This document shows positions 7,837 through 53,176 of a stretch of DNA of 64,000 nt, piece after piece. The DNA comes from Scenedesmus sp. ARA3. Its lineage: Eukaryota; Chlorophyta; Chlorophyceae; Sphaeropleales; Scenedesmaceae. The notes under the pieces are model-generated. The model saw nothing but the letters and a program-made list of their open reading frames with translations. It made no database searches and was not told where the DNA came from. Location: assembly GCA_004335835.1 (NCBI GenBank), contig RWJK01001941.1, positions 27,026 through 91,025 on the forward strand, written 5' to 3'. Both the position numbers and the translations under genes were made by a program. The number at the start of each line of letters is the position of its first letter. Within the stretch, counting starts at the first letter, position 1.

Positions 7837-10800
7837 TCAGCCATGCTCCAGCGTGTTTGGTGGCCGATTCAAATGCAGGTAAGCCAGCTGCTGCAGCATC
7901 TGCTCTGATGTTGCAGGGCCAGCAGCAGCACCACCAGCAGCAGCACTGCTGCTGGCAGCAGCACCGCCAGCAGCAGCAGCAGCAGCAGCAGCGCGGCTGC
8001 TCTTTGTTGAGAGCTGCACACTAGCACAGCCTCCGCTAAACGGCACACTGTGAACCCCTTGGTGCATGGCAGCAGCAGCAGCTGCTGCTGCATTGCTGCT
8101 GCTATTGCCGCTGCTGCTGCAGAAGCGGCACCAGAACCAGTGCTGGGCCCATGAGGCATCAAGCAGCTCCAATGGCAGGCCGGTGCAGCGCACCATGAAC
8201 AGCCATGCAGCAGCCTGTGATTGAATTCGAGTGTGCAAAAAGGGCAGCAAGCACCGTAAGAAAGGCCGTCATCGCAGACACAATGCCACGCACAAGCACC
8301 TGCAGGCGTGGACTGTACATGCAGCTTCATTAGCGCATGAGAGCTTGCTGTTGCAGCTGCTGCTCTGTTTATCACGCCGCAAGATGTAAACCGCAAGGAG
8401 CTTGCAGCCGCTGGCTTCTGAAACGGCATGTAACTATAGTTGCACATGGCTCTTATCAAATCGTCGCATCAGAAGCTAGGGTTGCAACATTACATGTCAC
8501 TGCTGCACTCACCGCTGTCGCTACGCTGGCCGTGGTGAACAGCAGGAACAGGCCCCATCCCCTCAGGTGGCACAGCAGCGGCAGCGTGGCAAGCGTCCAC
8601 GCAAACGCCTGCAGCAGGGGCAGCAGCGCTCCAACTTGTGTCATGCACACCCCGTCGCCAAGTGGCAGCAGTGAGACAGGTTATAGGAGTGTGCAGCAGT
8701 AGCACAGCAGCTGCGTGCCTGCAGAACTGCATGCTGCTCCACAGTTTACGCCATGTGGTTACCAAATGTGATATGCACGCGGGCATGTGCAGCATGGAGC
8801 AATGCGCCAGCCATGACGGCCGTGCAAGCAAGACGCATGACTCTGTCAGAAACAGCACAGCGGCTGTAGCCCTTGAGGCCAATTTGAATGCAAAGCATGC
8901 CGCATCGCTTGCAGAGACTGCCACACGATTTTCCCAGTGCTGGGACAAAGCATGAAGCATGCAGCAAGAAGCCTGCAGCATTGCTATGCATCATGGCGTC
9001 ACCTGCAGCGACTTCCAGCATACAATTATGCCAGTGGCCAGGGACACCAAGCCTGGAGCGTGCGGCATGCGGCATGCAGCATGCAGCATGAAGCATGAAG
9101 AAAGAAGCACGGAGCATGAAGCATGCAGCCCGACGCCTGCACCAAACATACTGAAGCCCAAAACATGCAGACTGAAGCCTGAAGCAAGCAAGCTCTCCAC
9201 ATCACCTGCAGCGACTGCCAGCACACGGTCATGCCTGTGGCCTGTGGCACCAAGCATGGAGCATCAAGTATGCAGCATGCAGCAAGAAGCATGCAGCAAT
9301 TCATGCATCATGGCATCACCTGCAGCTACTGCCAGCACACCATCATGCCAGTGGCCAGGGAAATCAAACCTGTCAGCATGCAGCATGCAGCACGCAGCAC
9401 GGAGCATGCAGCCCGACGCCTCAACACAACAGACTGAAGCCCGAAACATGCGACTGAAGCCAGACGCAAGCAAGCTCTCCGCATCACCTGCAGCGACTGC
9501 CAGCACACAGCCATGCCTGTGGCCTGTGGCACCAAGCATGGAGCATCAAGTATGCAGCATGCAGCAAGAAGCATGCAGCATTGCAATGCATCCTGGCATC
9601 ACCTGCAGCGACTGCCAGCATACAATCATGCCTGTGGCCAGGGAGCGCGTGGGCAGTGGCTGCACCTCAAACGCGTGGATCCACAGCAGCTCGTTGGCAG
9701 CGTAGTCCAGACCCTGCAGGGGCACAGCAGCAAGAAAAACAATAATCAGGGACACATCAGCGGCTGCACCTCAAAGGCGTGGATCCACAGCAGCTCGTTG
9801 GCAGCGTAGTCCAGGCCCTGCAGGGACACAGCAGCAGTGAGGTACACAGCAGTGAGGTACACAGCAAGTAAGAGGCATAACAGCGGCTGCACCTTGAAGG
9901 CTTGGATCCACAGCGGCTCATTGGCAGCGTAGTCCAGGCCCTGCAGGGACACCGACAGGGACAGGGACAGGGACACAGCAATGTAAGGACAGGAACACAG
10001 CAACGAGGAGCACAACCAGTCAGGGACACATCAGCGGCTGCACATCGAATCGCGTGGATCCACAGCAGCTCGTTGGCAGCGTAATCCAGGTCCTGCAAGG
10101 ACACAGCAGCAGATGCTGTTTGCACTTGATTGCATCATCACTGCAGTGTGTCCTATAGCTAGAGCGTTACAAGGGTGCAGGCCACATGCACTTGGCTTGT
10201 ACGTTTACTGCAGTTGCCCAGCAACAATGCTTGACACCAATCCATTGGCAGGCACAGCGGCGCTACTCACGCAAGCGAGGCTCAGCAAAGCCGCTACTGC
10301 CCAAGCCCATGTGATGGGCAGCTGGTTGGTCCTGCCGGCTTGATAGTACACCAGATGGATGATCAGTGCCACGGCAATGTAGCAGGCTGCAGACGCCAGG
10401 CAGCCTGCCGCAGTGCCGCCTCGGCGGCCGACGCTGTCTGCTGCTGCGACGGCCAGCACGCCACCTGGGCAGCAAAAACATCAGGTGGTGCACAGATGCA
10501 GCAGGTCATGGATGCAAAATGACGTGTCTAAGCACATCCCCTGACCCAGACTTTGCTGACACTCGTGTAAGGCGAGCCGCTCACTCATCCGTGTAAGCGG
10601 CAGTGCATTGACTGGACGCTTCACTGCCGTGCACATTGCCGTTTCAATCCTACGTTGTCGCCTCACGTCAAAGCACTTACAACACAACCGCATGACTTGA
10701 GCACCATCGCATTGGACTGACCCATTGAAGTCCTGGAAGAGCTTCTGCAGGGGTGCAGCGCCAAACTCCCATCCCCTCACTCACCCACCACGCATCCGAA

Positions 10801-11989
10801 TGAAATGAACACCATGCTCATTGCATAGCCCTTCAGGCGGCCATACCCCAGCTCCTAAAACACCACGTTCTGCGCTCCAAGCAAGCAAGCAAGCCAGAGA
10901 GCGAGGCAGTGTGGCGGCTGCCGCAGTGATGGCTTGCCCAGCGCTGTGAAGCAGAGGAACATGGCGCTGCCGCTCACCTACAACGCAGCCGAACGAGATG
11001 AGCACCATACTCATTGCATAGCCCTTCAGGCGGCCATACCCCAGCGCGTAAAACACAGGGAAGGCGCTCGTGCTCAGCAGCGCGCCGCCTGTCGCACTGG
11101 CGACAGTCACGAGGCCCAAGCCTGCAAACAGGGCCAGCTGCGCCTCGCGCTGCTGCTTCAGGGCTTGAAACTGCGTGCGGGCCTGCATATGCATACAGAA
11201 AAGGCACGGCGGTGGGGCTGAGCAGCGCGCCGCCTGCTGCACGTGCGACAGTGATTCGTAACGTTACATTCAACAACAAAGGAGTGAAAGCCTCAATGAG
11301 GAGCAACGAGAGGCTCATAGAAGGAGGATATTTCAGTGACCAGGCCCAGGCCTGCATAGAACGCCAGCTGTGCTTCGCGCTGCTGTTTGAGGGCTTGGTG
11401 AATGTGTGCGAGCCTGCATATGCATACAGAAAAGGCAAGGCGCTGTCATGCAGGCGCCGACAGGATACAGTCAGGGATTGCGGGGTGTGCAATCTTCACA
11501 GCACAACAGCTTGCCACGTGCATTTTAAATGACTACAACTCAATCCATATTAACTCACCGAGGTGAGCAGCTGTGAGGCAGCCAGGAGCTCCCCAAACTC
11601 CTGCTCAGTGCTCTGCAGCATGCCGCGCAGCCCTGCTGCTGCTGCTGCTGACACACATAAGCTCGCACACTCACCGAGGTCAGCAGCTGTGAGGCCGCCA
11701 GGATTTCTGCAAACTCCTGCTCAGTCCTCTGCAGCATGCCAACCAGCCGCCACAGCTGTGTCCTGCTGCTGCTGCTGCTGCTGCTGACACACTTAAGCTC
11801 GCACACTCACCGAAGTCAGCAGCTGTGAGGCCGCCAGGATTTCTGCAAACTCCTGCTCAGTGCTCTGCAGCATGCCGCGCAGCCGCTGCAGGGCCAGCCG
11901 AGCCTCTGGCAGCTTGCCCCGCTGCAGCAGGCTGCTGGGCGTTTCTGGCAGCCACAGCAGCAGCAGCACGGTCACTAGCGCAGGCCTGC

Positions 11990-12032
<43 letters not shown>

Positions 12033-12191
12033 GATGGCACCTCTAGTCAGCTTGCCTGCTGCAGCAGGTTATATGTTCAAACCTATCTGCTGTCACTAAC
12101 ATTCGGCCTGCCACCACAGTGCCACTGCTGGCCGTCAACATGCCGCTGCTCACACGTCATCAGCAATGTGTATCCCTTCTCTTCCTCCTCC

Positions 12192-12222
<31 letters not shown>

Positions 12223-15143
12223 ACTGCTGCTGCTGCTGCTCACCATATGCCAAAGACAGGCACCAGCCGCCACTGCCAGCTGCGCTGCTCCAGCGCCAGG
12301 CCAAACGTGAGCAGCGCAGAGCACATGAAGCCCACAGCCCGGCCCATGGCCTGACAGGCTGCTAGCGTGCCTCGCCGGTTGAAGGGAACAACTTCTAGAA
12401 CTTCAAGCAACGGGGCCTGCGAAGTTTGGGGTTGAGGTTCAAACCACCAGCAGCAGCAGCAGCAGCAGGGCACACTGGCTTAGGGTTTTCATGCAGAATG
12501 CCATGCAAGGTGTGCTGGCACAGCGCACATAAAGCCCACAGCCCGGCCCATGGCCTGACAGGCTGCTAGGGTGCCTCGCCGGTTGAAGGGCACCACTTCC
12601 AGAACTTCAAGCAGCGGGGCCTGCAGTGTATGTGTGTTGGGGTTGAGATTTCATGGTTTAGGTTTGATTATTTGAGACGATGCCTTGAAGCATCGGACAG
12701 GTGCGGTGCGGGCGTGCTGCAGTAGAAAAAGCAATGCATTGGGCTGCACAACCTGACCTGAAACAAAGATAACAGTAACACTAACAGCTATCACACCTGA
12801 TGTAACAGCCCTACAGAGAAGCCTGTGACAGCGCGGGCGATCCAGGCCTGAGCTGCGCTGTAGGCAGTCACCAGCAGCACCTGCAGCATCGAAAAAGATT
12901 AGCAGCGGGACACACCTTCAGGCCAGCAAGCACCTTTGACGTAGCCAGTAGCGGGACATTGTAGGCGGTCACCAGCACCACCTGCAGCAGCGTAAGAGGT
13001 AGGTTCAAACAGGCACCAGCTCAGAACGGCGAGCCGGGTGTTTGTGTCGGGTGTCTGAAGCACCTGGCTTGTGCTTTACTACTACTGTTGCAGCATAACA
13101 GCCATTTGTATGACTAGAAGCGTCACACCACACTTTTGCGCTCACCTTCGCCAGCACAGACATTGCCCAGCGCACCCAGGTGTGCAGCGCCAGTAGCAGA
13201 AACACGAGCCATTGCAGCGGTAATGAACCTAAGGGCATGCATCGCCAGCCCACCTTTGCCAGCACAAACATGGCACAGCCGCGTGCCACGCTCGGCTTGC
13301 GGCCCTTGCGATGCTGTCAGGCAGCATGACTCACCAGCTGTAGACAGTCATGCATTGTCACCCTACCTTTGCCAGCACACACATGGCGCAGCCAAGGGCC
13401 ACGCTCAGCTTGCGGCCCTGCCGTTGCGACATACACATGCGCCTGACGCTGCGCAGTCCATAGTGACAGCACATGTCCGCCGGGTAATCTGTATGGTGGA
13501 CTGCCAAACGACCTACACATATCACGGATAAATACGGACATCATCTCGTAGCACTGCCTGCAGCAGCACCAGCTGAGCAGTCACCAACAATGGCCGACTC
13601 AACAAACTTTGCCAATGCACCAACCTTTGCCAGCACAAACATGGCGCAGCCCAGCGCCACGCTTGGCTTACGGCCCCGCCGGTGTGATAGATGTGCTGCC
13701 GTCAGTGCGCCCAGCGCAGCAGCAGCATGCGGCAGCGCCAGGTACAGCTGCACATCGGCCCTGTGGAAGGTGCAGAAGGGGCGGAAGCCTGTGATGTGGC
13801 GGGCCTCTGGATTCCCGAGTCCCAGGCCCGTCTGGATCTGCAGGGGTGCATGGATATGGATCCGGTTTCAGACTTTAAGCTCTTATTCGGAAAATGGCAA
13901 GCAGGAAGTCCTGCATGTGGCTTTTGCAATTAGATTGGCAAACACAGGACGTTAGTGCGCCAAGCGGCAGCAGCAGCAGCTGCATGCGGCAGCGCCAGGT
14001 ACAGCTGCACATCGGCCCGGTGGAAGGTGCAGAAGGGGCGGAAGCCTGTGACGTGCCGGTCTTCTGGATTGCCTAGTCCCAGGCCTGTCTGGATCTGCAT
14101 CACAGGTGAGTGAGTGAGTGAGTGAGTGAGTGAGTGAGTGAGTGAGTGAGTGAGTGAGTGAGTGAGTGAGCGACTACCCAGGCAGCTCTGCAGCTCCTGA
14201 GTGAGTTGAGGCTAAGAAATGGTGTGTGTGGCCAGGGGCATCGCCCCTGGCTCACACCCTCTACCTGTCTGCTTGCGCCCTAGGCACAAGCGTGGCGGTG
14301 CATCACAGGTTTGATGAGGACAATACAGGGTCATGCGGCAGAGGTGTGGAAGGGCATGCGAGGAAGGAAGGCTGGTGGCAGGTGCACGTCAGGTTTTATG
14401 GAAAGTGCAGAAGGGCCGGAAGCCTGTCACATGCTGATCGTGCGGGTTGCCCAGCCCCTCGCCGGTCTGCATCTGCAGGGATATGTGCGTTTGAATTTCA
14501 TTTGGACTTTGAGTCTTAGTTTGAGGGTTCAATGTCTAATTTTGAGCACATGCACTAAGGGGTTTGGCGTTGATTTTGATGTGCGGGCGGGCTCAAACCT
14601 CGGCGGACCCCAGTTCTTCTGGATGTGCAAGCCGGAGGTCAGTCTGAAGCTGCTTGTTGGTTCAAGACAAAATTCAAAGCAGCAGATGTGTACAAGGATG
14701 TAGGCAAGCACAGCAACACAACATCAACAAGTGCTAGCAACCAAGCTAGGAGCTGTTTCTCAGCACCAGCGCGGCGTATGGTGAGTGCCCTTTTGATGCT
14801 GCCGGGTGTCACTCGTGTGTCACTGCTGCTGCTGGGTGTCACTCGTGTGTCACTGCTGCTGCTGGCTGTCGCTCGTGTGTCACTGCTGCTGGTGGGTGTC
14901 ACTCGTGTGTCACTGCTGCTGCTGGGTGTCACTCGTGTGTCACTGCTGCTGCTGCTGCTGCTGGGTGTCACTAGTACTACTGCCCTGCCTGCCCACCTGA
15001 GGGAAGAAGCTGTCCCTAAAGCCCTGGATGAACAGCGCTGAGTCACCATCAGTAAACCCTACCAGCCAGCCTGCCGACATGGCAACCCACACAACCATCC
15101 AGATGAATGGAGTCACTGCAGGCGGGCGCCGCTGCTGCGCCAT
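7837..15143 (-). CDS. MFS sugar/H+ symporter homologue of the HUP/STP hexose transporter family
   Basis: Ten exons join in frame to 591 aa: 15143-14997, 13837-13625, 12880-12797, 12416-12244, 11985-11811, 11182-10978, 10464-10271, 9713-9603, 8608-8513, 8214-7837. Family landmarks in order are TPFIWMVVWVAMSAGWLVGF (TM1), FCTFHRADVQLYLALP and HRRGRKPS (TM2-3 loop), VTGFSVGLLHQ, FNRRGTL, WLPETPSSLLQRGKLPEARL (sugar-transporter signature), DSVGRRGG (after TM8), NELLWIHAFEVQPLPTRS (TM10-11) and CTGLPLELLDASWAQHWFW (C-terminus). The last matches the STP end pattern with its HWFW. Twelve membrane spans are expected in the plasma or another membrane. The TM7 QQxTGIN sugar-binding motif and the TM1 GYDxGxxGG motif are missing, so the substrate is uncertain. 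The C-terminal tail is Ala/Ser-rich. Nearly every intron carries partial exon copies (listed separately). Confidence 0.85.
8990..9530 (-). repeat. Four donor-side copies of transporter exon 8
   Basis: Segments near 8998-9035, 9203-9240, 9315-9352 and 9483-9522 repeat the exon end ATGMxVCWQSLQ followed by a GTGATG donor. All lie downstream of the intact exon (9713-9603). The spacers are rich in GCATGCAGCA, and the unit 9203-9480 is repeated at 9483 with a period of 280 bp. Confidence 0.85.
9766..10098 (-). repeat. Three acceptor-side copies of transporter exon 8
   Basis: Segments near 9766-9828, 9893-9952 and 10040-10096 repeat CCCTGCAG followed by GLDYAANELLWIHAFEVQPL. All lie upstream of the intact exon. 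Each loses similarity after QPL, before the PTRS half. The outermost copy has a one-base frameshift after WIHA, and the middle copy has substitutions (NEPLWIQAFKV). Confidence 0.9.
10790..10866 (-). repeat. Donor-side copy of transporter exon 6
   Basis: It repeats LGYGRLKGYAMSMVFISFGC and its GTGAGT donor. It lies downstream of the intact exon 11182-10978. Confidence 0.85.
11330..11427 (-). repeat. Acceptor-side copy of transporter exon 6
   Basis: It repeats the acceptor and the exon start, read as HQALKQQREAQLAFYAGLGL. It lies upstream of the intact exon. A further fragment of exon interior (GGALLS-like) lies at about 11190-11260. Confidence 0.85.
11555..11770 (-). repeat. Two donor-side copies of transporter exon 5
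   Basis: Both copies (near 11561-11640 and 11688-11760) encode GMLQxTEQEFxExLAASQLL and keep the donor with its trailing CAG units. Both lie downstream of the intact exon 11985-11811. Confidence 0.9.
12530..12617 (-). repeat. Acceptor-side copy of transporter exon 4
   Basis: It repeats PLLEVLEVVPFNRRGTLAAC almost exactly. It lies upstream of the intact exon 12416-12244. Confidence 0.9.
12940..12985 (-). repeat. Acceptor-side copy of transporter exon 3
   Basis: CTGCAG is followed by VVLVTAYN, matching VLLVTAYS of the intact exon 12880-12797. The copy lies upstream of it. Confidence 0.7.
13143..13430 (-). repeat. Three donor-side copies of transporter exon 2
   Basis: GRKLSVALGCAMCVLAK (about 13370-13425), GRKPSVARGCAMFVLAK (about 13250-13305) and RWAMSVLAK (about 13143-13200) repeat the end of the intact exon 13837-13625, each with a GT donor. 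Divergence rises with distance from the exon. Confidence 0.9.
13955..14472 (-). repeat. Two acceptor-side copies of transporter exon 2
   Basis: About 13955-14094 and 14390-14472 repeat the exon start, which is IQTGLGLGNPE followed by VTGFRPFCTFH. The nearer copy runs on to YLALPHAAAA. Both lie upstream of the intact exon. Confidence 0.9.
14106..14170. repeat. (GAGT)n microsatellite
   Basis: About sixteen GAGT units inside transporter intron 1, between the two acceptor-side copies of exon 2. Confidence 0.95.
14805..14968. repeat. 30-bp minisatellite in transporter intron 1
   Basis: Five to six units of about 30 bp, GGTGTCACTCGTGTGTCACT followed by GCTGCTGCTG. They lie just downstream of exon 1 and its donor in the sense direction. 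In the sense strand they carry CAG units. Confidence 0.9.
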
Positions 15144-15154
15144 GCTGCTGCTGG

Positions 15155-26074: not shown

Positions 26075-26292
26075 TGTGGATTCGTTCTTAGACATGTGAC
26101 GCTCACACAAGGGTTGCTTTTAACAAATCACACTTTGCTTGCAAGCTTGCAATCAAAGCGATTGGATCGGTCTGTGTACATAGTTGCACTGCCGGGAAGC
26201 ACACTTTGCAGCACTGCTGCTGGCCACTGCGACAGCAGGCCTGCATAGCTGCTTTACGCACCCAGTTAGGCAGGGTCTTGTCAGTTGGCATA

Positions 26293-26430
<138 letters not shown>

Positions 26431-29624: not shown

Positions 29625-32600
29625 TCACCGCATGGCTGTGACTGTCGCAGCCTCCATGCTGCTGCTGCTGCTGCCAGTGCCCAGGCTCGCTGTCAGTGCT
29701 GCCAGCCGCCGGTCAGCCGCCAGCATCCTCGGATCAGTCGGATCTTCCACCCAGTGATCCATCTCAGAAGAGTGAGCCAGCGCCGCCATCACACTTTGCA
29801 GCGCCTGCCAGCGTGCATACTCCTCTGGGCCGGCCCCAGCACGAGGAGGCGGCACATACACTTGCGGCTGCGGCGGCTCCTGCTGCTGCTGCTGCTGCTC
29901 CTGCTGGCCTCCAGACCATGGGTCCTGGTGGGCTTGATGCTGCTGCCCTGATGAGGGAGAGAAGCGAGGCTTGTCTGTCCAGTGCTGCATCACACTAGGA
30001 TCATGCTGCTGCACGCTCGGATCGCGGATGCTGGCAGCAGCCTCCCTGCTGCTGCTGAGGTCCATGCTGCTGCTGCTGCTGCCCTGCTGCTCCATCATGC
30101 TGTAGTAGCTGCGGGCCGCCATTGCCGAGGATGCATTGTCGATATCATCCGCGCTGCTGCTGCTGCCGCCAAACCTCGGGCTATCTGTGTGCACCGCCAC
30201 GCCAGTTGCACCAGCAGGCACCGAGGAATAGGGAGTGCTGCGCCAGCTAGCGCCTCTGCCGTAAGGTGCCTTAGACTTGGTGGTCCTCTTGACAGCCTTG
30301 CTCCAGGTGTCAAGTACCAGCACGCCGCGGCGGCGGCCGTTGTTGCCCTGCGCCACTGGCACCTCCATTCCCAGGTTGTCTCCTGGCTGCCACTTGTCAA
30401 CTGAGGTGTCGCTGTTGCGCACCACGTACTTGTACTCGACCAGCTCCCTGCAGGATATGACAGTTACAGTAACAGCCGGCAAGTCAGTAATGTAACAGTC
30501 ACCTGGCCACAGGGGTGTCGCCATTTGCACGGCGTTCAACTACTCATCAAGCTGCCTGAGAGGAAGCAATATGACGGACAGCAAGCTGCTGGCAGTTGCA
30601 GTGAGCCCGCGGGCAGCTTCATGTCGGCCTCTTACGTGCATTATACATTGCAGGAACAAAAAAACAAACAGTCAAACTGCACTAAAGGTCAGAAAGCCAA
30701 CTCACCCTGCGGGCAGCTCCACGCTGGCCTCCCACACGTTGCCCTCCTGCCACGTCAGGCGCTGCCACAAACTCTACCCGAGCCACATGCCCACCTAGAC
30801 CACACATTTAAACCCAAATTACCAACTCACCCTGCAGGCAGCTCCACGCTGGCCTCCCACACGTTGCCCTCCTGCCACGTCAGCCGCACCGCATTGTGCA
30901 AACATAAGCAGACACAACACAAGATACCAAAAAACATCGCAAACCAGGCTCACCCTGCAGGCAGCTCCACGCTGGCCTCCCACACGTTGCCCTCCTGCCA
31001 GGTCAGCCGCACCGCATTGTCCACGTTCCAGGCCCCCAGGCTGGCACAGCTGCCCACTACCAGCAGGTGCTGGCCCCACTCCACCTGGAGACGGATGTTG
31101 AAGCGCACAGGCGTGCCAGCAGCCAGGATGCGCTTGACCTGCGGCAAGTGAGGCAGCACGTGACAAAGCAGTGTGTCAGTGATGGTAGGCAGAGTCTTTG
31201 GTTGCTGTTGAAGTGCACGGGCGAGCCGCCAGCAACGATGCGCTTGACCTGTAACAATCTGCAGCCTTCACACCTGCTTGCTCTTGTTCCAGGAATCCTC
31301 CACATCCAGGGCCAGGGCCTCAGCACAGCCCCCGGGCGGCTCCAGGCTCATATTACTACAAACCATCCATCTCGAAGCGCTGCAAACACCTGTCACATAG
31401 ACATATAAAAAGAACAGCTGTCACACAGACATGATCATAAAAAGAAGAACAAAAACCCACCTGCTTGCTCTTGTTCCAGCTGTCCTCCACGTCAAGGGCC
31501 AGGGCCTCAGCAGGGCCCCCGGGCAGCTCCAGGGACACGTTGTCTCCCTCCTGCCAGCGCACCACGCTGCCATCCGCGTTGCGCACCACATACTTGTACT
31601 GGATGTGCGCGCTGCACGTGGCAACAGTATGGCAACAGATGTTGTCAGAAAGAAAAGCGGAGAAGCGGAGACGTGGGGTAGCTGTGCGTGCTGTGATGAG
31701 GCAGAAACTAAAAATGCATGCTGCACATATGCAGCAGCACCCGTGAACGCCAATGAATCAGCCCACGCAGCCGGCCAGATGCCAGTCACAAAACAAAGCC
31801 ACTCGTGCTACATGTATGCACCAATTGTTGCTGAGGCTTGATCAGTGTTCTGATGATGACGATTGCAAAACATTGGCAGCTCACCCTGCAGGCAGCTCCA
31901 CGGACCCCTGCCAGATGTGCCCGGGGCTCCATGCCAGGCGTACACCAGCCAGCACGTCCCAGTCACCCCAAACTCAAATGCGCACGCAGTGCAACTCCAC
32001 AACACAGCTGTCGTGCTGCGCCTCACTCCGCGATCAGCTCCTCGAGCCTTATCAGATGCAACACACCAACATGCAGCCAGCCCGTCATCCTGCAAATGCA
32101 CACAAATTGCGTTTGAATGGGTGCAATGAGAAACTCACCCTGCAGGCAGCTCCACTGATCCCTGCCAGATGTGTCCTGGGGACCATGCCAGACGTACACC
32201 AGCCAGCACATCCCAGTCGCCCAGCGCTGCGCAGTTTCCCACCAGGTACACCTCCTGGCCCCAGTCGGTCTTGTAGCGCACATGGAACTGCAGCAGGTTC
32301 AGGAGCACAGGGTGGCATGTGGTTTAGAAGGTTGGCACAGCGAATGCACCGGGCGGTGACGGCTGCGATAGAACAGTCTGAGTTGTCTTGCAAGCTGTGA
32401 GTTTGCAGGAGAGTGGCTCAGCGCTCTGCTGCAGGCTGCCCTGCATGCAAGTATATGTGTGCTGGTATTGTATGCATACGTGCATTGTGCATTATGCGCA
32501 ATGCGTGGCTGCTGCCGCCGCACCTTGACTGAGCGTGTGCTAGAGTAGAGGCTCCTGCCACTCTTCAGCTTGAACCGCTTCAGCCCTGCGTCAGCTAAAA

Positions 32601-35190: not shown

Positions 35191-35195
35191 AATGC

Positions 35196-35875: not shown

Positions 35876-37448
35876 GTTAGGAACAAGACAGTGGTGGGCT
35901 TGAAGGCCACCTTGATGACGATGTCCTCGCCATTGCTGATGCCACCCTGCAGCAGCAGCAGCAGCAGCAGCAGCAGGGTCAGCAGGTGTAACGCCCGCAG
36001 CAGTTGCAAAAGTGCGCAATACAGCAGCACCAACAGCACCATGATCACTGTCCTAGATGTGCTGCAAGCAAACCAACACCATAGAAAGGCATCAACAGCA
36101 GTTGCCCACTCATCCAGATCTAAAGCTCTGTGTAGATGCAGCTAGCTAGACTACAGCTCTGTGTAACACGTTCCTGTGATAAAGTACTGCATTTGCACAT
36201 GACACCAGCTGTGACACGACTTCAAAAGTATGCCTGCAGTGCATGCAGTCGCATACATCTGGTCACCATACCTGGATGCCGCCAGATCGGTTGGTGCGTG
36301 TGCGCACTGCGGCGATCTCCATGTAGAAGGCAGTCGCATACATGTGGCAAAATTTTATTCATTTTTTAGCCTTAATTTTGAATATCAATAACTTAATAAT
36401 AATTGATTTGAATTGTAATCGTAATTTTACCTGGATGCCGCCAGAGCGGTTGGTGCGTGTGCGCACTGCGCCGTCCTCCATGTAGAAGGCGTCGTTGTGT
36501 GCGCTGCCGGTCATACGCGAGCCGCTGAAGCCGCTGCCGATCTCAAAGCCCTGCAGATTATAACAGCACAGCAGCAGCAGCAGCGCATGCGTCAGCAAAT
36601 GACATGTTTGAGGCGCAACCGGTCATGCATGAGCCGCTGAAGCCGCTGCTGACCTCAAAGCCCTGCAGCAGCAGCACACCAAGAACAGAAGATGCAAGAC
36701 TGATCACACTGGTGCTGGAGCAGCTGCACCACAATAGGCACATGGTCGTTGTAAAACACGGACACAGCTCAGCGCAGGCTCTGCAGCAGGTCACAGATCT
36801 GTTGAGTTGCCCAACATCTAACCCTGACTGGCTCAGCAACTCTCCAAAACCCTCACACCTTTGTGGCTGGCAGGCTCAGCATGGCTTTCGCAAGCTCTGC
36901 TTCCAGCTTGTCAAACACAGGGGTGCCCAGGCCCTTGGGGCAGCTGCGCACCACGCATGTGACGACGCCACCGCAGCTCTCACCACGCACACGCACGTCA
37001 TTGATCACTGCGGGCGGCACAAAGGGAGCATGCAGCGCAGTGCAACAGTCAGTACAACGCACCACAGTCAGGCATTGCCTGCCGACCTTATGCCGGGGCA
37101 GATGGTTCTGTGCAAGACTGCAGCACCTGGTGCCTGTGTTGCTCTGCTGCTGCTGCCGGCTGCTACGTCTGTATGCTAGCGGCTGCTAGAGCTTGCTGAA
37201 CCTGCAGGTTGGTTTCATGGGACGGCGCGAACAGCCTGCTGCTTTCAGCACGGAAGCGAATCGCGAGATGCCTCCATCACAACAGCAAGAACACAGCTGC
37301 TGCTCTGCCGCTCCCAGGGCAGCTCTTGCCGCTGCTGCTGCTGCTGCCGCTGCCGCTGCCGCGCAGCACTGTTGCACCAGCCTCCGCCTGCCGGAACTGC
37401 TGCTGCTGCTAGTGCAGACAACCAATTGTGCTGTTGAACTGTTTGTTA

Positions 37449-37479: not shown

Positions 37480-38926
37480 GCACCGTCGATCATCTTCTGC
37501 GCGGCCTCCTGGTCTGGGCAGCGCACGATGTTGCTTTCAACGTCCTCCATGGTGAACGCTGCATGGTCCACGTTGCTCTCCACGTCCAGCACGCCGCTCA
37601 CATACGCCAGGATCTGTGTCAGATCATGAGGAGAGGAAGAAGCAGATGAGCACAGCACATTGCATGCATGGTAAATGAGGCATGTTCCACGTTGCTTGTC
37701 ACGTCCAGCACGCGGCTCACATACGCCACGAATTGCAGCATGTGATGGAGAGAGACAACAGCCTGTGAGCACAGCGCAGCACATTGCATGCATGGTGAAC
37801 GCTGTGATCGCGTTGCTGTCTAAGTGCAACACGCCGCTGACATACGCCAGGATCTGCAGCATACAACGCGTTGATTACGTTGTGACACACCATCATGTAT
37901 ATATGCGATATACGAAGCATGAGATGGATTTCAATGACCGCCAACACGTGCAGGTATGCTGCACAAAGCCATGGCTGATGTCGAGGCAGTTGCGGCACGA
38001 GATGCTAGGTGACAAGCAAGCTGTGCTGATGCATGCTGCTTATGTGTGGACCAGAAGTTGACATAAACATGTGCGCTGTGATGCATGCACTTTGCATTGA
38101 TCATGAGCCAATATAGGAACACCAGTTCACCCTGAAATGCAGCATGCTCTGGCCGTTGCCATGTCGACACAGCAGCAGCTGCTGCAGACGTATACCAGCC
38201 TTGACTGCGTTTGACTGATGGCCATTTGCTTGCGTGGATGTTTACATATCTACAACTGCCCAGCAGCAACGCATGCAAGCGGCTGCACTCCTGCAAGCAG
38301 CTTGCTGCTGCAGCAGCTGCTGCCTGGTCAGCTGTGGCTGTGCCATTCCTCATGCCTGCATGCCCTGCTGTGCCTCATTGACCTGCAGCACCTACCTCTG
38401 TGCCTCCAACAACCTTCAGCAGCTTCTTTGCTACCGCTCCTGCAGCCACTCGGCCAATAGTCTCCCGAGCAGAAGACCTGCCGCCCCCTGCTACTGCCCT
38501 GATGCCATACTTGAAGTCGTAGGTGGCATCCGCATGTGATGGCCGGTATGCCACTGACATTTCTGAGTAATCGCCGCTGCGCTGGTCCTTGTTGCGCACG
38601 AGCACGGCAATGGGGGTGCCTAGCGAGACACCATCGAACACGCCCGAGAGGATTTCGCAGGTGTCCTCCTCCTTGCGCGGAGTCGTGATAATGCTTTGAC
38701 CTGGCCTCCTTCTGTCTAATTCAAACTGGATCTCCTCAGTGGTGATGGGCAGCCGTGGTGGCACGCCATCAATTACACAACCGACGCCCTTGCCATGAGA
38801 TTCGCCAAACGTAGTGACTCGAAAGTTGTTTCCATAAGTGCTGCCTGCAGCCTGCACTCGCAGGGCGCGCCTGCTGGCACGGCCAGTCACTGCAGGCCGC
38901 TGCTGCTGCAGCTGTTGGAGCATCAT
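35335..38926 (-). CDS. Chorismate synthase, plastid-targeted type
   Basis: The enzyme converts 5-enolpyruvylshikimate-3-phosphate to chorismate with reduced FMN, the last shikimate step. Exons 38926-38396, 37613-37484, 37007-36859, 36550-36431, 35831-35738 and 35501-35335 join in phase to about 396 aa. The start is the first of two ATGs. Residues 1-28 are Gln/Arg/Ala-rich and transit-peptide-like. All three family signatures are present: [10 protein letters not shown] (near 40), [15 protein letters not shown] (near 160) and [19 protein letters not shown] near the end. [54 protein letters not shown] and [18 protein letters not shown] lie between. The C-terminus is uncertain: read-through after DQLLQ gives a stop at 35335, but GTGTGTGA there could be a donor. 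The gene is tandem to HAKAI, whose stop lies 419 bp upstream. Confidence 0.93.
35838..35978 (-). repeat. Acceptor-side copy of chorismate synthase exon 5, with (CTG)n tracts
   Basis: 35890-35948 repeats [19 protein letters not shown] upstream of the intact exon (35831-35738). Both the copy and the exon are preceded by CTG tracts in sense (about 35952-35978 and 35838-35874) that end in the CTGCAG acceptor. The duplicated unit therefore includes the repeat. Confidence 0.9.
36271..36664 (-). repeat. Both edges of chorismate synthase exon 4 duplicated
   Basis: About 36605-36664 repeats the exon start ([15 protein letters not shown]) upstream of the intact exon 36550-36431. About 36271-36343 repeats the exon end ([20 protein letters not shown] with a GTATGG donor) downstream. 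Confidence 0.9.
37449..37483 (-). repeat. (CAG)n tract directly after the chorismate synthase exon 2 donor
   Basis: In the gene's sense the donor reads GTGCGCAGCAGCAG and continues for about eleven CAG units. Confidence 0.9.
37665..37862 (-). repeat. Two acceptor-side copies of chorismate synthase exon 2
   Basis: Copies near 37790-37860 ([15 protein letters not shown]) and 37665-37738 ([14 protein letters not shown]) repeat the start of the intact exon ([15 protein letters not shown], from 37613). Both lie upstream and share the extra tail ACCATGCATGCAATG. Confidence 0.9.
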
Positions 38927-43728: not shown

Positions 43729-43789
43729 NNNNNNNNNNNNNNNNNNNNNNNNNNNNNNNNNNNNNNNNNNNNNNNNNNNNNNNNNNNNN

Positions 43790-43847: not shown

Positions 43848-46689
43848 AAACTACTTGAACGTAACCTTTGCGTCTGCGTCTGCTGCTGCTGCTGCAGCTT
43901 GAGGAGTGGGAGGCTGACGCGTCACCTGGGCAGCTGTCGCTGCTGGAGGCGGTGAGGGAGGTGCTGGCGGCACTGCTCAAGGACCTGGGCAGGTGGGCAA
44001 CATGTTGTTTTTGTTATCCTTCAGGCAGGGCCGTGATAGTTTTCAAATAGAATCCAGCAAATGTCACAACTGAGGGAGTTGGGCAGGTGAGCAACCCGGG
44101 CGTCAGATTCATGCCTTTCCTGTCTGTTTGAAAGTATGAAAGTATGAAAGCTTGGAGCTCAAAGATGTTGGCGTGCATGCTGTTTTAGTCATAGCTATGT
44201 AGCGCCTGTGGCCATGGACGCTCTGTCAGCCTTACCGCCATGCACCAAGCACATGTGCGTCGCGCGCCAAGCTTGGCTGGCAGCAGCAACAGTGCTTAGT
44301 GCAGTTGATTACTGTGGATCTGCTGTTTCAGGCCCAGCTGTCATGTGTTTTCAACTGCACGCCGGTCAAACGCCAAGCTTGACCTGGCTGACTTGGCAGC
44401 AGCAACAGTGCTATGCACAGACTTTCTCTCTGCTGTCTTGCATGTATGTGTCAAACATACACAGGCCAAATGGCAAGCCAGACCTGCCTTTGCTGATGCC
44501 TCCATGTGGTTGTTATTTTCAACATGCAGGTCAAACGCCAAGTTTGACCTGGCTGACCTGGGAGCAGCAACAGCGCCTAGTGCACGCTTGGCATGTCTGC
44601 TATCTCAACTCCAGCTGTCGTGGTGATTTAAAAAACAACGCAGGTCCAACGCCAAGCTTGATCTGGCTGACCTGGGAGCAGCAACAGCGCTCAGTGCAGG
44701 GCTTGTTGTGCTGCTCTTTGAGGCTCAGCTGTCATTTGAATGAATTTCATGCAGGTCAAACGCCAAGCTGGACCTGGCTGACCTGGCAGCAGCAACAGCA
44801 CGTGGCAGCGACCCGTCAGCCCTGCTGCGACCGCTGGACAGGGCGGTGCGGCAGCAGCTGGAGCCTCTGTGGCACACCCTCAACTGGCGCAGCAGGTGAG
44901 GATAGCAGAATGTAGAGTTCAGTGTGTCTCGCTTGGTCATCTGAGGGTGTAAGCATGTCACATGAGTGACTTTACAACTGATGTTGATACCACCACATGA
45001 TGCTGTGGAGGCTAGTGCTGCTGGGTGAAAGCAGTCCGCACAAAGACAAATCAGATTAACCATTGACTACCCAATGGGCTGCCTGCCTCCTGACGCCGCC
45101 CTGCTGCAGGACTGCGGTGCGCGACCTGGCCATTGTGCAGAGCTTCTCTGCTTGAAGAGAAACCAGACAATGTCATGCACCAATCAGTGCTGCCTGCTAT
45201 GTCATGTTGGCTGCCCTGCAGGACTGCTGTGCGTGACCTGGCCAGTGTGCAGAGCCTGTCGTCGGCGCTGATGGGTTACGATGCCATCACTTTCCTGCAG
45301 CACCTGGAGGGCCTGCGGCTGAGTGAGGGCGGCAGCAGCATATGGCTGTACCACGAGGCGACGCACGTCATCTACGAGCAGGTACATATGTGTATGGATC
45401 TGTGTTTGCAGTTGCCTGTTTGGAAATGCTAGCTAGCCTGTGCCATCAGGCGACGCGCGTCATGTTTGCACAGGTATGCTGCGCTTGTTGTCACCATGTG
45501 GGGTAACCATGCACGCTTGTCTGTGACACAGTGAGGGCAGCAGCAGCATATGGCTGTACCACGAGGCAACACATGTCATCTACGAGCGGGTATGACACAT
45601 GATATGTAGCACAATGTGCTGTTGAAGGTGTTACGACATGCAAAGTCAGGTGCCTGACATGTTGCAGCAGCATCAGGCTGTACCACGAGGCGACATACGA
45701 GCAGGTATGACAATCCAACACGCTGTAACACATTACAATGGTCTTTCCATCTCTGGTGCGTTGACTCTCAGTAGGATGGGGATGGTGTTGCTGATGCAGG
45801 TCAACTTGTCTGTGTTGTGAGTGAGCATGGGTCATGATTGGTGCATCGTTCACAAGCGAATGTTGTGCTAAAGGACGTGCTTCCTATGCAGCTTGGGCAG
45901 CAGCATCTGGCTACACTACGAGGCAACGCACGACTCATATGAGCAGGTGCGCCACATGCAACATGTTACATAATCTACAAGCACGTACGAGCTTCATGCG
46001 CTTACTCTGCAGGTACGAAGTGCATGACCTGTTGACTTGGATGAGTGAAGGTTGCAGTTTTGCATGTTGCCTGCTGACCACCTCAAAATGTTACCCTGCC
46101 GCCCTGCGCCTGCTGCTGCCGCTGCTGCATGCAGGCTCGGAGGCGTGTCTACAAGATTGTGTACCCCTCACATGGTGCAGCCGGAATCTCAGCAGCAGCA
46201 GCAGCTGCTGCTGCTGGCAAGCAACGAGGCGGACAGAAGCGTGGCAGAGCTGCTGCCAGTGCTGCTGCTGCTGCTACTGCTGTTGATGAAGTTGCTGGCA
46301 GAGCAGCTAAGGCAGCACGCAGCAGCAGCGACAGCACGGCACCTGCTGCAGCGGCAGCAGCAGCAGCGACAGCCAGGATTGAGCCTGTGCTTGAGTGGCC
46401 TCCCAAGTGGGAGCTGCTGCAGCAGCTGCTGGATGAGGTGCAGCAGGTGCAGCAGCAGATGCAGCAGCAGGCGCAGATCGCTGTTGTGGTGCCAGAGGGA
46501 GAGGAGGACGAGGAACAGCAGCAGCAGCAGCAGCAGCAGCAGCCAAATCAGCAGCAGCGGCAGCAGCAGCAGCAGCAGCCAAATCAACAGCAGCAGCAGG
46601 GGCAGCAGCAGCGGCAGCCGCCAGGGGTAGAAGTAGTTGAGCTGCTGGACTCATCAGAGGAAGGTGATGAGGCAGCTGAACAGCTAACA

Positions 46690-46737
<48 letters not shown>

Positions 46738-47565: not shown

Positions 47566-47600
<35 letters not shown>

Positions 47601-47768: not shown

Positions 47769-47814
<46 letters not shown>

Positions 47815-48241: not shown

Positions 48242-48292
<51 letters not shown>

Positions 48293-51200
48293 GTTTACCA
48301 TGACGCTGTTGTAACAGGCGGAGCGCAGTGCCGCCAACGCGCTGCTGCCAGCAGTGCACGTGTACCAGGCCTACTATGCAGCTTCACCTGAGCAGGCTGC
48401 CTTTCAAGCTGCAGTGGCGCGTGAGAGCAGCATGTTTGGGGACCTCATCCGCGCAAAGCAGCACCTGGTGCTTCCTCTGGACATGGGCCAGGACAGCCTG
48501 AAGCAGGTGGGGTTCAGGGTGTTACAAATGAGCAGTAGATTTCAGGTTTCAGGGCTTTGGATGGCGGCAATGTTCTCAGCATCCAGGTAGCAGTGGGCCT
48601 GCTGTCGGTGTCTGTTTGGCGGTGTGTCTGTGCGACACAAACTATCATAGTGCAGAACAGGTGTACAGGTGCGTCCTTCCCTAAAACTGCTGCCTGCCTG
48701 CCTGCCTGCCTGCCTACCTGCCTTCCTGCCCGCCTGCTCGCGCCTGCCGCCCGCCGTTACGCGCAGCTGCTGCCGCCGCTAGCAGAGCAGACCCAAGCGC
48801 TGCAGCTGCAGCAGCGCAACACCGGCCGCAGCGCACTCGCCCAGGGCCCCCACGCCCCAAACCCCAATGACCTGTGGCTCGACGTCTACTCAGCAAATGC
48901 ACTGAGCAGGGTCGGGGGTTTAGGGAGGCGGCTAAAACCCGTGCCGTGCCGTCTGGTGGTGGATGTGCGCGAGTTCATGTCAGGTCTGCCTGCAGTGCTG
49001 CACCAGCAGGGCTTCCGGCTGACACCCATCACCCTGGAGGTATGTGTGTTATACTAATTTTGTCTGTTTTGGGGTTCTACTTGTGCTGCTTGTAGCGGCG
49101 ATGTCAGTTTTCTGTTGCCAGCGTGTTATGATACCAATTCTCCCAGCAGGGTTGGTGTGGTGGATGTGCATGAATTCATGTCGGCGCTGCCTGCGGTGCT
49201 GCACCAGCAAGGCTTGCGGTTGACACCCATAACCCTGGAGGTACGGTTCTGTGGTTGTTAATATGACTCTTGGCGCTTTTATTGGTTTGAACTGCTTGCT
49301 AGTAGCAGAGGTCTTCTTGAGAAGTGGGTTTTGCAGTATGTGGTAAAAATGTCTGCTGTTGCGTGCAAGTGAATTGCTCTGTGGTCAGCTTGGGTCGTGG
49401 TGGTTTTAGGTGCAAGTTCATGTCAGGGCTGCCTGTGGTACTGGTGACCTTTCATAACAGACTGTGGCTCCTAAACCCTGCCCCCCTGCTTCTTAAACCC
49501 TAAACCCAGGTCGGTGACTACGTGCTAAGCCCCGAGGTGGTGGTGAAGCACAAGGCCCTGCCCGACCTTTTCCGACAAACCCTGCCATCTGTGCCTGTTG
49601 AACTTTAATCCCAGGTCGGGGACTACGTGCTAAGCCCTGAGGTGGTGGTTGAGCGCAAGGCCCTGCCCGACCTGTTCGCCTCGTTGGGCAGTGGCCGGCT
49701 GTACCACCAGGCTGAGGCGATGGTGAAGGGCTACAAGACACCCATGCTGCTCATCGAGTTTGACGGCGATAAGGTAAGAAAGCAGTGTGAAGCACAGTAG
49801 CAAAATGACATAGCACTGGCTGCTTGTACGTGAGATGCTGTTCATTGAATTTTGTGGGTCAAATCTGCCGCTCCAATGACTGTGGGCGGCAATTGGAAAG
49901 GTGGCTGTACCACCAGGCTGAGGCGATGATCAACGGCTACAAGACACCCATGCTGGTCATCGAGTTTGACGGCGATAAGGTGAGCAATGGGGTTGAGTTG
50001 ACATTGGCGACAGTAACACAGCACTGGCTGCATGCTCCTGAGATGCTGCTCAGTGAGTTGATGTGAAGAATGTGATAAGTAGGTAGGCTTCACCTATTGT
50101 CTACGCAGCAGCGCTGCACAGCCCTCACAGGGTGACTGTCATGGTCAGGATGACAACCTTTTCTGACACATTCACCTCTACAATGCCTGATCGACTCTGC
50201 AGGCCTTTTGCCTGACCCACCCCTCGGAGGTGGCCGGCTGCGCTTGCTTGTCACTGGTGTCCAAACTCACGGATTTTAGTACAGGTACATCGCAGCATGC
50301 AATGACATTGCTGCCATCTGTACTGCTGCCCTCCCGCCCTCAGGCCTTCTGCCTGACTGGCGCCTCGGAGGTGGCTGACTGCACTTATTTGTCACTGGTG
50401 TCCAAGACCCTGATGCTTTGTTTCCAAAAGTGAATGACACTGCAGCTGCTGCCCTGCTGCTCCTCTGCAGGCCTTCTGCCTGACCGGCCCCTCAGAGGTG
50501 GCTGACTGCTTGGACAGCACAAGCCAACAGGCACGGCTAGTCACATGCGCTTCTGACACCGCTGCCCCTGGCACTGCTTTCCGCATCCAACTGACCTGCA
50601 GGCAGGGTGTCTGACATGCCCAGTCTCTGCATCTCATGCACAGTTCGTGACTTTAGCATGTGCCCCTTGCCCTGCCCCACTGCTGACCTGGCACACTCGT
50701 TGCTGCAGGCCTTCTGCCTGACCGGCCCCTCAGAGGTGGCTGACTGCCTAGACAGCAGCAGGAGCCCACAGGCACGTCTGGTCACATGCCCTGCTGATAC
50801 AGCTGCCCCTGACACTGCATTCCCGCATGCAACTGCCCTGCAGGCAGAGTGTCCGACATGTGGGACTGATGCCCGTTCTCTGCATCTCATGCACAGCTGG
50901 TGACTTCAGCACGTGCCTCTTGCCCTCCTTCACTGCCCAACTGGCGCACTCGTTGCTGCAGGCCTTCTGCCTGACAGGCCCCTCAGAGGTGGCTGACTGC
51001 CTTGACAGCAGGAGCCCACAGGCGCGGCTGGTCACATGCCCTGCTGATACAGCTGCCCCTGGCACTGCCTTCCCGCATCCCGCTGCCCTGCAGGCAGAGT
51101 ATCCAACATGTGGGACTGATGCCCGTTGTCTGCACCTCATGCACAGCTAGTGACTTCAGCACGTGCCTCTAAGAGGCAAAATTACCCTGCCCCACTGCTG

Positions 51201-52433
51201 ACCTGGCACACTCGTTGCTGCAGGCCTTCTGCCTTACGGGCCCCTCAGAGGTGGCTGACTGCCTTGACAGCAGGAGCCCACAGGCGCGGCTGGTGCTGCT
51301 GCTGCTGCACTTCCCAAAGCTGAGGTGAGCCCGCCATTGTGTATGATGCATTGACGTTTTGACGTCACTGTATTGTTATGCAAATCTAATCTCTTGCCAA
51401 CTTGTGTCACATTTTGTTGGCAGCTGGGCGCCGGTGGCGGTCTCCTTTTGGAGGCGATGCCAATAACTGCATGCAAAATGATGGCTGATGCATTCGACAC
51501 ACCGCGACAAAGAACAGCTGGTGTGCACTCACAAGCTTTGGATCTGTGTGCGCATGTGGGCTGCTGATGTAGCCATCCGCCCTTGCTGTCTGTTGCGTCT
51601 GCTCGCAGGCTGCTGTGGTCCCGCAGCCAGCACGCTACAGGGGAGCTGTTCCGGCCTGTTCTGCACACCTTGTCATCTTGATGTCTGTTCACTGCCTTGT
51701 TGTTTGTTGCTTCTGCTCGCAGGCTGCTGTGGTCCCGCAGCCAGCATGCCACAGGGGAGCTGTTCCTAGCACTGAAAAGGAGCAACCAGCAGCCTTTAAC
51801 CTGCCTGCGCACCTGCCTGCACAACCTTCTGCTGTCTGTTGCACCTTCACTCAGGCTGCTGTGGTCCCGCAATTAGCGCGCCACTGGGGAGCTGTTTCTG
51901 GCCTGTTCTGAACACCTTGTTATTTTCTGTTTTCTGCCGCCTTGCTGTCTGTTGCGTCACCAGAGGGGAGCCGTTCCTGTCCCTGTGCTGGCTCTGCTCC
52001 TGGCTCTGTCACCCTCCTGCACAACCTTCTGCTGTCTGTTGCGTCTTCACTCAGGCTGCTGTGGTCCCACAGCCAGCACGCCACCGGGGAGCTGTTCCTG
52101 GCATGTTCTGCACACATTGTCATCTTTACTTATGTTCACTGCCTTGTTGTCTATTGCTTCTGCTCACAGGTTGCTATGGTTCCGCAGCCAGCATGCAACC
52201 AGGGAGCTGTTCCTGGCCTGTTCGGCACACTTTGTTGGGGGCCTTGTGGCTATTTATTTATCCGCCGCCTTGCTGTCTGTTGCGTGGCCACGCAGGCTAT
52301 TGTGGTCCCGCAGCCAGCACGCCACAGGGGAGCTGTTCCTGGCGCTGAAGCGCAACCAGGAGGAGCCGGAGCCAGCAGCAGCAGCACTCGTGGGCCTGCC
52401 AGCCGGCACAGCAGCAGCAGCAGGGGCTGGCGA

Positions 52434-52468
<35 letters not shown>

Positions 52469-52831
52469 ATGGTGATGCTGGCGGCAGCACTATCAGCAGT
52501 GCTATGGTGTCAGGCTCAGCTGCTGCTGCATCCTTAGTAGCTCATCAAGCACAGGTACGCATGAGTTTCCTGCCGCGGTGCATCACTGTTACCCTGGTTG
52601 AAGGCGACATCTGTGTGCATTGCAAAAGACGCACAGACACATCAATGTGCTCTATTTGAACCATGCATACAGCAAGCAGCAACAAACGCAGGCAGTGCTG
52701 CACCTGCTGTGCTGCAAACACATTCTGCAACGTCATTCGTTCACTTGAGCAGCTCTGATGCTGCTGTTGCTGCTGCTGTTGCTGCTGATACCATAACAAT
52801 GTGCTGGATGATACATCGCATGTTTCCACCG

Positions 52832-52925
<94 letters not shown>

Positions 52926-53176: not shown

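What the first reader, a model, noticed from the sequence alone, without database searches (positions are those of the whole stretch)
8990..52225. Systematic partial exon duplications across splice junctions in four unrelated genes
About 50 degenerate exon fragments lie in the introns of the hexose transporter, CBM20, chorismate synthase and XPF genes. They follow one rule: acceptor-side fragments (intron tail plus exon start) lie only upstream of the intact exon, and donor-side fragments (exon end plus intron head) lie only downstream. That is what repeated tandem duplication of short segments spanning a splice site would leave, with the spliceosome still able to use one intact exon. Similarity falls with distance in the best arrays (XPF exon 13, CBM20 exon 5, transporter exon 2), so the process is recurrent. 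I know of no description of introns growing genome-wide by this route. It could also feed alternative splicing or exon creation.
Basis: partly seen in the sequence, partly recalled or inferred. Interest (0 to 1): 0.92.

Follow-up and report, generated by a model that had tools for sequence, protein, structure and literature searches.

The report
Introns built from duplicated exon edges
In this green-alga-like genome many long introns carry tandem arrays of partial copies of their own neighbouring exons, nearly always on the side where one exon stays intact, which points to introns growing by repeated duplication across splice junctions.

Summary
The copies are real and occur well beyond the window. 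In the four window genes I find 38 exon-fragment matches (17 exons tested), 33 on the predicted side. In sampled genes of four other families of the same genome, 139 copies form 68 arrays; 67 of 68 arrays obey the rule (start-of-exon copies upstream, end-of-exon copies downstream) and all 139 are in sense orientation. Tandem duplication of segments spanning a splice site, mostly 97-175 nt, explains the geometry. The spliced XPF model matches XPF in the PDB over 146 residues without a gap, so it needs no copy.

New points: in 41 introns with predicted splice sites, 21 of 22 repeat families touch a junction. Units hold at least about 42 intron bases. Most copied splice sites survive. The trait varies by gene: CCT 34 of 56 exons, kinesins 2 of 38.

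Weak: a general fall of similarity with distance (pairs 57 for, 55 against; arrays 20 for, 11 against).

A single junction-crossing duplication is published (potato RdRp). Ten searches found no such systematic arrays. Best reading: junction-spanning tandem duplication, tolerated through exon definition (inferred), then near-neutral decay.

The parts
9003..9524 (-). Transporter exon 2 donor-type array: four copies of the exon end (9488-9524, 9320-9361, 9206-9242, 9003-9044)
   Evidence: 90-93% identity to exon positions 70 or 75 to 111, all downstream
9603..9713 (-). Transporter (Sugar_tr) intact exon anchor
   Evidence: acceptor ctgcag before it, gtgatg after it; Sugar_tr match of the joined model
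9758..10089 (-). Transporter exon 2 acceptor-type array: three copies of the exon start
   Evidence: 95, 86.7 and 91.4% within exon positions 1-60
10674..11367 (-). Transporter exon 10970-11137 with two upstream (start-side) and two downstream (end-side) fragments
   Evidence: 75.8-89.3%
11553..11930 (-). Transporter exon 11802-11930 with two donor-type copies (11666-11755, 11553-11626)
   Evidence: 92.2 and 90.5%
12312..12602 (-). Transporter exon 12312-12398 with one upstream copy at 12518-12602
   Evidence: 91.8% over anchor positions 1-85 of 87
30705..31108 (-). CBM20 exon 30953-31108 with two donor-type copies (30830-30900, 30705-30762)
   Evidence: 97.2 and 94.8%; CBM_20 match
31274..31598 (-). 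CBM20 exon 31461-31598 with one donor-type copy
   Evidence: 89.0%
31884..32281 (-). CBM20 exon 32138-32281 with one near-whole downstream copy (anchor positions 3-144 of 144)
   Evidence: 75.4%
37482..37853 (-). Chorismate synthase exon 37482-37613 with two acceptor-type copies (37667-37731, 37791-37853)
   Evidence: 84.6 and 83.3%; Chorismate_synt match
36501..36659 (-). Chorismate synthase: repeated exon start; my anchor 36606-36659 is probably the copy and 36501-36547 the start of the intact exon
   Evidence: assignment by inspection
48950..49443 (+). XPF exon ending at 49039 with donor-type copies at 49157-49240 and 49397-49443
49510..49981 (+). XPF exon 49615-49776: one acceptor-type copy (49510-49572) and one donor-type copy (49903-49981)
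   Evidence: 90.5 and 94.9%
50203..51325 (+). XPF exon 12 acceptor-type array: five copies upstream of intact exon 51224-51325, inner units about 250 nt
   Evidence: TRF 50465-51294 period 250
51604..52356 (+). XPF exon 13 acceptor-type array: six copies upstream of the intact exon start near 52291
48950..52398 (+). Four XPF exons (ERCC4 nuclease domain) that, joined at GT/AG sites I chose, give a gap-free match to XPF in the PDB
13236..14518 (-). Further tandem-repeat cluster near the 5' side of the transporter gene, exons not resolved
44277..45974 (+). Two further tandem-repeat clusters upstream of the resolved XPF exons, exons not resolved
   Evidence: TRF 44521-44799 period 114

Best explanation
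Recurrent tandem duplication of short DNA segments (mostly 97-175 nt) that straddle a splice junction has enlarged many introns of this genome. A unit across an acceptor carries at least about 42 nt of intron tail plus the first 20-100 nt of exon; a unit across a donor carries the last 20-100 nt of exon plus at least about 60 nt of intron head. After duplication only the unit joined to the rest of the exon is functional, so fragments pile up upstream (acceptor) or downstream (donor). Units then multiply as tandem arrays. Shown in the sample: the geometry, sense orientation, shared breakpoints, a higher-order repeat, concentration at junctions, a minimum intron part, survival of most copied splice sites, and strong differences between genes. 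Inferred: splicing ignores the decoys because exon definition pairs the closest acceptor and donor around the real exon. A unit lacking a complete acceptor (branch point, pyrimidine tract, AG), or with donors too close together, would mis-splice and be lost, which would set the minimum. The copies decay nearly neutrally, perhaps with occasional exchange with the live exon. Not known: what makes the duplications and why some genes have many and others none.
For: Side rule: 137 of 139 copies and 67 of 68 arrays in sampled CCT, kinesin, aminoacyl-tRNA synthetase and proteasome genes, all in sense orientation. No upstream copy comes within 10 nt of the end of the exon hit; one of the downstream copies comes within 10 nt of its start. 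Copies within an array share breakpoints (L037 exon 8864: copy starts 67, 65, 65, 66, 66; L042 exon 8668: 75, 75, 75, 75, 76, 76), and L045 exon 5784 alternates ends 46/76/46/76/47, a two-unit repeat. Two L042 copies are identical over a whole 107-nt unit. In 41 introns with predicted splice sites, 21 of 22 repeat families touch a junction; they cover 6123 of 12183 nt of the 15 introns that have them, and one 941-nt intron is covered end to end. Under random placement of a 125-nt duplication in a 270-nt intron, corrected for detection and with the 42-nt minimum, P = 1e-4 (1e-5 with a 56-nt minimum). Intron part 56-163 nt in the 22 nearest CCT/kinesin units and 42, 44, 53 and 201 nt in four window units with exact acceptors; for all 26, P = 3e-6 under uniform placement. 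Identity stays high through the exon and the splice motif and falls beyond -5 and beyond about +7, as expected if only the live copy is constrained. XPF alignment without insertion. Pooled pN/pS 0.30 with 6 stops in 2675 codons, far looser than expected between functional CCT genes (recalled, not tested).
Against: Pure neutral decay does not fit fully: pN/pS 0.30 (0.24-0.37) against 0.36-0.48 simulated with mutation bias and 0.49-0.65 without; 4 stops in the CCT copies against 8.5-22.9 simulated. The departure from the most biased neutral simulation is marginal: 4.5% of bootstraps reach 0.36. Exon parts diverge less than fixed 50-nt intron parts even between copies (0.17 against 0.36 in 11 arrays), though well-aligned intron parts differ by only 16%. 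The placement test depends on assumed ancestral intron length and unit length: P ranges from 3e-8 to 0.26 with the 42-nt minimum. Exon parts were measured from BLAST ends and within 120 nt of exon, so unit parts are approximate; near-whole copies also occur (L046 10-160 of 162, L057 15-147 of 147, CBM20 3-144 of 144). One CCT array (L040) breaks the rule with two weak matches (72 and 71%). Exon definition rests on no RNA data. Intron length and copy presence are partly circular.
Confidence: 0.8

Rival explanations
1. Ordinary random tandem duplication of non-coding DNA; the junction bias is only because exon-bearing copies stay recognisable longer.
For: The exon part is conserved on one branch, so old junction copies remain detectable; 8 of 22 arrays become undetectable once exon parts are blanked. 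For long units in short introns random placement is not rejected (P up to 0.26).
Against: After that correction random placement gives P = 1e-4 for typical values. The 26 introns without junction families contain no repeat at E 1e-3 in 7321 nt. Window clusters fall in the interval 8900-52500 in 17 of 19 cases, only mild evidence because that interval is 68% of the window (P = 0.03).
Confidence: 0.22
2. The copies are maintained by selection or are used: alternative exon edges, or decoy splice sites that help exon definition.
For: pN/pS 0.30, fewer stops and gaps than neutral expectation, most splice sites intact (AG 17 of 19, GT 23 of 23 in copies of at least 75% identity).
Against: Splice motifs are not clearly more conserved than the adjacent exon part. 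Unit length is a multiple of three in 5 of 22, so inclusion would usually break the frame. The joined XPF model needs no copy. Fragment ends showed no donor in the two gene stretches I read by eye.
Confidence: 0.12
3. Live exon and copies exchange places: unequal crossing-over inside the exon parts lets a copy become functional, which filters copies retroactively. This would add to, not replace, the best explanation.
For: Star-like divergence (copy-copy pS 0.237 against exon-copy 0.223), nearest and farther copies equally similar (89.0 and 88.8%), constraint intermediate between neutral and coding.
Against: No mosaic copies were demonstrated. Almost no exon-copy pair is near identity: at most 97.8% among 112 CCT copies; one synthetase copy is 100% over 31 nt.
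Confidence: 0.35
4. Assembly artefact: fragments of other haplotypes or strains inserted next to the exon.
For: Draft genome of 1567 contigs; unit size near short-read length; broadly similar pS in the well-sampled genes (0.15-0.25).
Against: Shared breakpoints and a higher-order repeat; copies carry stops and many amino-acid changes; contig C1417 holds a kinesin gene without copies and a proteasome gene with five; no copy of 139 lies within 200 nt of an N run.
Confidence: 0.05

Closest known systems
Potato RdRp gene PGSC0003DMG402000361, tandem duplication across an intron-exon boundary (PMC4974935; passages read)
   Different: One event in one gene, and it created a new intron; here there are many genes, both donor and acceptor sides, arrays of up to seven copies, and the copies appear to stay inside the intron.
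[quoted passage not shown] review PMC3443670, passages read)
   Same: Tandem duplication near splice signals, coding sequence left unchanged.
   Different: That model duplicates exon sequence and makes a new intron; here existing introns grow.
Novel intron positions in Drosophila by sliding or tandem duplication (PMC2891723; passages read)
   Same: Tandem duplications in genes rescued by splicing.
   Different: Duplication lies within the open reading frame, and the authors say their cases are not supported by remaining sequence conservation.
Solea senegalensis dmrt1 intragenic duplication with a partial non-functional exon (PMC7605655; passages read)
   Different: A single ~5-kb duplication with whole exons included.
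Introner elements (recalled)
   Same: Recurrent change of intron content in some algae.
   Different: Introners are similar sequences at unrelated sites; the one array tested, the 830-bp XPF array, matches only its own neighbourhood.

Membership tests
Tandem duplication spanning a splice junction (potato RdRp type) | Copy contains intron tail plus exon start, or exon end plus intron head, contiguous and in sense orientation | tested here: met
   in about half of the units the intron part is too diverged to align beyond the splice motif
Tandem duplication spanning a splice junction (potato RdRp type) | Head-to-tail arrangement next to the source | tested here: met
   successive spacings 80-241 nt
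Tandem duplication spanning a splice junction (potato RdRp type) | Creates a new intron or exon in the mRNA | tested here: inconclusive
   The XPF model needs none, but there are no RNA data
Intron gain by AGGT tandem duplication | New intron inside a formerly continuous exon | tested here: inconclusive
   Copies lie in introns between exons with contiguous profile positions, so the copies themselves split no exon; how those introns first arose cannot be seen without relatives
Tandem whole-exon duplication / mutually exclusive exons | Copy is a complete exon with both splice sites | tested here: not met
   0 upstream copies reach the exon end; 1 downstream copy reaches near the exon start, at 74% identity; one more in the window (CBM20, 75%)
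Introner elements | Homologous intron sequence at many unrelated loci | tested here: not met
   one array only: three matches, all in its own neighbourhood
Minisatellite in an intron | Tandem array placed without regard to exon boundaries | tested here: not met
   21 of 22 families touch a junction

The most novel reading that the evidence does not exclude
A junction-targeted duplication process, guided by something at exon-intron boundaries (chromatin, transcription or splicing), is a main route of intron growth in this lineage. It leaves introns tiled, some end to end, by splice-competent copies of their own exon edges, which the cell ignores by exon definition and which keep trading places with the live exon.
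Probability: 0.32. Interest if true: 0.88.

Novelty: new variant of a known kind. Interest (0 to 1): 0.77.

Why it matters
How introns lengthen is usually answered with transposons or unspecified drift. Here intron growth is written out unit by unit, with a clear side rule and a minimum intron part. The arrays are natural tests of splice-site choice: several similar donors or acceptors in a row, apparently only one usable. Comparing genes with and without copies could show which introns are recognised by exon definition, and the arrays could be dated in sister strains. They also warn annotators: gene finders that use homology will be misled by such exon fragments, as the out-of-order profile hits show.

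Tried and rejected
A first idea of strong purifying selection on copies (third-position mismatches 143 of 226, no stops in 42 copies) was weakened: copies of one array share exon-lineage changes, a singleton count gave 38/41/78 by codon position with 4 stop changes, and simulations with transition and GC-to-AT bias bring the neutral ratio down to 0.36-0.48. The large exon-intron divergence contrast is partly inflated by forced alignment of repeat-rich intron flanks. A first claim of a 56-nt minimum intron part was corrected to about 42 nt when window units with exact acceptors were added; this made the placement test weaker, and I lowered the novel-case odds from 0.35 to 0.32 and raised the random-placement rival from 0.20 to 0.22 for it. 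The idea that copies come from diverged functional alleles was set aside because pN/pS looks too high for CCT proteins (expected value recalled) and breakpoints are shared. Two-organism contamination was set aside because C1417 carries both kinds of gene. Direct use of copies by read-through was judged unlikely from unit lengths. Related algae could not be searched: says the genome has no relatives here. The first Pfam scan of the transporter peptides gave nothing (protein 3); a longer model matched Sugar_tr. Dropped before counts: 3 of 59 CCT hits as partial copies; 3 synthetase hits on C1400 as copies or frame-broken; 6 of 47 resolved introns below score 9, and 5 adjacent hit pairs that gave no intron; 4 of 23 acceptor and 3 of 26 donor copies below 75% identity. 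Only parts of the families were fetched: 10 kinesin regions (38 of 130 hits), 2 synthetase contigs (14 of 37 hits), 7 proteasome regions (16 of 26 hits); the DEAD family was searched but not analysed.

Full report
WHAT WAS CHECKED. The window is part of a draft genome of 87.3 Mb in 1567 contigs. Codon and splice style (GTGAGT/GTGCGT donors, CTGCAG acceptors, CAG repeats) look like a chlorophyte green alga; that label is from general knowledge, not from a search.

THE OBSERVATION IN THE WINDOW. Seventeen distinct exon anchors, read from the translations, were compared with their flanks up to 2500 nt or the next anchor. There are 38 matches in 14 exons; 19 upstream matches cover the exon start and 14 sense downstream matches cover the exon end. 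The five exceptions are one antisense match and four cases that I explain by short or misassigned anchors or decay, after seeing them. Independent self-comparison finds 19 clusters of tandem-like repeats in the whole window, 17 of them between 8900 and 52500, an interval that is 68% of the window. Four XPF exons, joined at GT/AG sites that I chose with consistent phase, match XPF in the PDB (9qec chain A, residues 703-848; human by recall) without a gap although the introns between them hold 15 of the listed copies. So that model needs no copy; it does not show what is spliced in the cell.

GENOME TEST. CCT/Cpn60: 59 hits, 56 tested, 112 copies in 34 exons: 48 upstream/start, 62 downstream/end, 2 exceptions in one gene. 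Kinesin: 38 of 130 hits tested, 2 copies, both on the right side. Aminoacyl-tRNA synthetases: 14 hits of two contigs, 9 copies, 9 right. Proteasome: 16 hits, 16 copies, 16 right. Together 46 of 124 exon hits have copies, 67 of 68 arrays obey, 139 of 139 copies are in sense orientation. Four arbitrary 3-kb stretches hold one tandem-like pair, 122 nt apart. The trait differs between genes rather than contigs: permutation of copy labels over genes never reached the observed unevenness in 5000 trials (108 exons, before the proteasome set), and contig C1417 carries a kinesin gene without copies and a proteasome gene with five.

ANATOMY. For 41 introns both splice sites could be predicted from contiguous profile positions, phase and consensus (score 9 or more). 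Fifteen carry junction-type families: 12 acceptor, 8 donor, 1 both; one further family is internal. Nearest units are 97-241 nt, 20 of 22 between 97 and 175; the exon part is 22-98 nt and the intron part 56-163 nt. Four window units with exact acceptors have intron parts of 42, 44, 53 and 201 nt, so the minimum is nearer 42 than 56. A minimum of 42 in 26 of 26 units is unlikely under uniform placement (P = 3e-6). Introns with families have a median length of 765 nt, those without 270 nt; 12 of 15 introns of 400 nt or more have them, against 3 of 26 shorter ones; the copies contribute to that length. One 941-nt intron is a run of donor copies followed by a run of acceptor copies. Copies in an array share breakpoints, and one array alternates long and short units. 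Exon-part identity in copies of at least 75% is 0.88 (acceptor) and 0.93 (donor); identity stays high through the TGCAG or GTGCG motif and falls beyond -5 and beyond about +7.

PLACEMENT. With units of 125 nt, an ancestral intron of 270 nt and the 42-nt minimum, random placement would give 58% junction-spanning families after correction for detection; 21 of 22 has P = 1e-4. The result is weaker for long units in short introns (P up to 0.26) and stronger otherwise (down to 3e-8). I take targeting, or selection favouring junction-spanning units, as likely but not proven.

FATE OF THE COPIES. Exon-copy pairs have pS 0.224 and pN 0.067, ratio 0.30 (0.24-0.37 over arrays), with 6 stops in 2675 codons (the window set alone gives 0.25 with 3 stops in 703 codons). 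Simulated neutral copies beside a constrained exon give 0.36-0.65 and mostly more stops; against the most biased simulation the difference is marginal (4.5% of bootstraps reach 0.36). So the copies decay nearly neutrally, with a mild deficit of damaging changes. Exchange between copy and live exon would explain this deficit, the equal similarity of nearest and farther copies (89.0 and 88.8%) and the star-like divergence; selection on copies would too. Most copied splice sites are intact (AG 17 of 19, GT 23 of 23 in copies of at least 75% identity), so the cell must choose among good sites. Exon definition, which pairs the closest acceptor and donor around an exon, would choose the intact exon and would explain why the copies are tolerated. 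This is inference.

The claimed fall of similarity with distance holds in some arrays (XPF exon 12) and fails in others (XPF exon 13). Pairs: 57 for and 55 against in the genome set, 21 to 18 in the window. The side rule alone is nearly forced by geometry. The stronger evidence is junction concentration, shared breakpoints and the intron-part minimum.

PRIOR WORK. Ten full-text searches listed no paper that, from title or abstract start, describes systematic junction-spanning arrays. The nearest is one acceptor-spanning duplication in potato RdRp that made a new intron (PMC4974935; passages). The review PMC3443670 lists tandem genomic duplication as a route of intron gain (passages). Subscription papers are mostly not in that library, so absence from print is not shown.

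Noticed in passing
window 53832-53985 and 55801-55907: A 94% repeat, 2 kb apart, whose first copy ends exactly at a 50-N gap (53936-53985); the gap may be a repeat-caused scaffold join.
   Followed up: no
window 43729-43789: 61 N inside a CTG/GCT repeat run, a small assembly gap.
   Followed up: no
window 26290-26429: (ATA)n microsatellite, 46.7 units, 97% matches.
   Followed up: no
window 14797-14972: 30-nt minisatellite (5.3 copies, 94%) nested in a 90-nt unit, close to a perfect (GTGA)16 run at 14106-14170.
   Followed up: no
window 6733-7265 and 53495-53834: Inverted repeat pairs at 73-79% identity, 46 kb apart, possibly old transposon sequence.
   Followed up: no
window 60835-63606: Dispersed direct repeats at 62-69% identity, perhaps a repeat domain of a coding gene.
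   Followed up: no
L069 2056-2231 (contig C1184): A 91% tandem pair 122 nt apart in an arbitrarily chosen stretch, the same unit size as the junction arrays.
   Followed up: no
L036 (C837), L040 (C1552), L044 (C1260): CCT/Cpn60-family genes with few or no copies (0 of 6, 1 of 3, 1 of 4 exon hits), while other members of the family are full of them.
   Followed up: partly
L040 5712-6220: Two weak upstream matches to the exon end (72 and 71%), the only exceptions to the side rule in the genome test.
   Followed up: no
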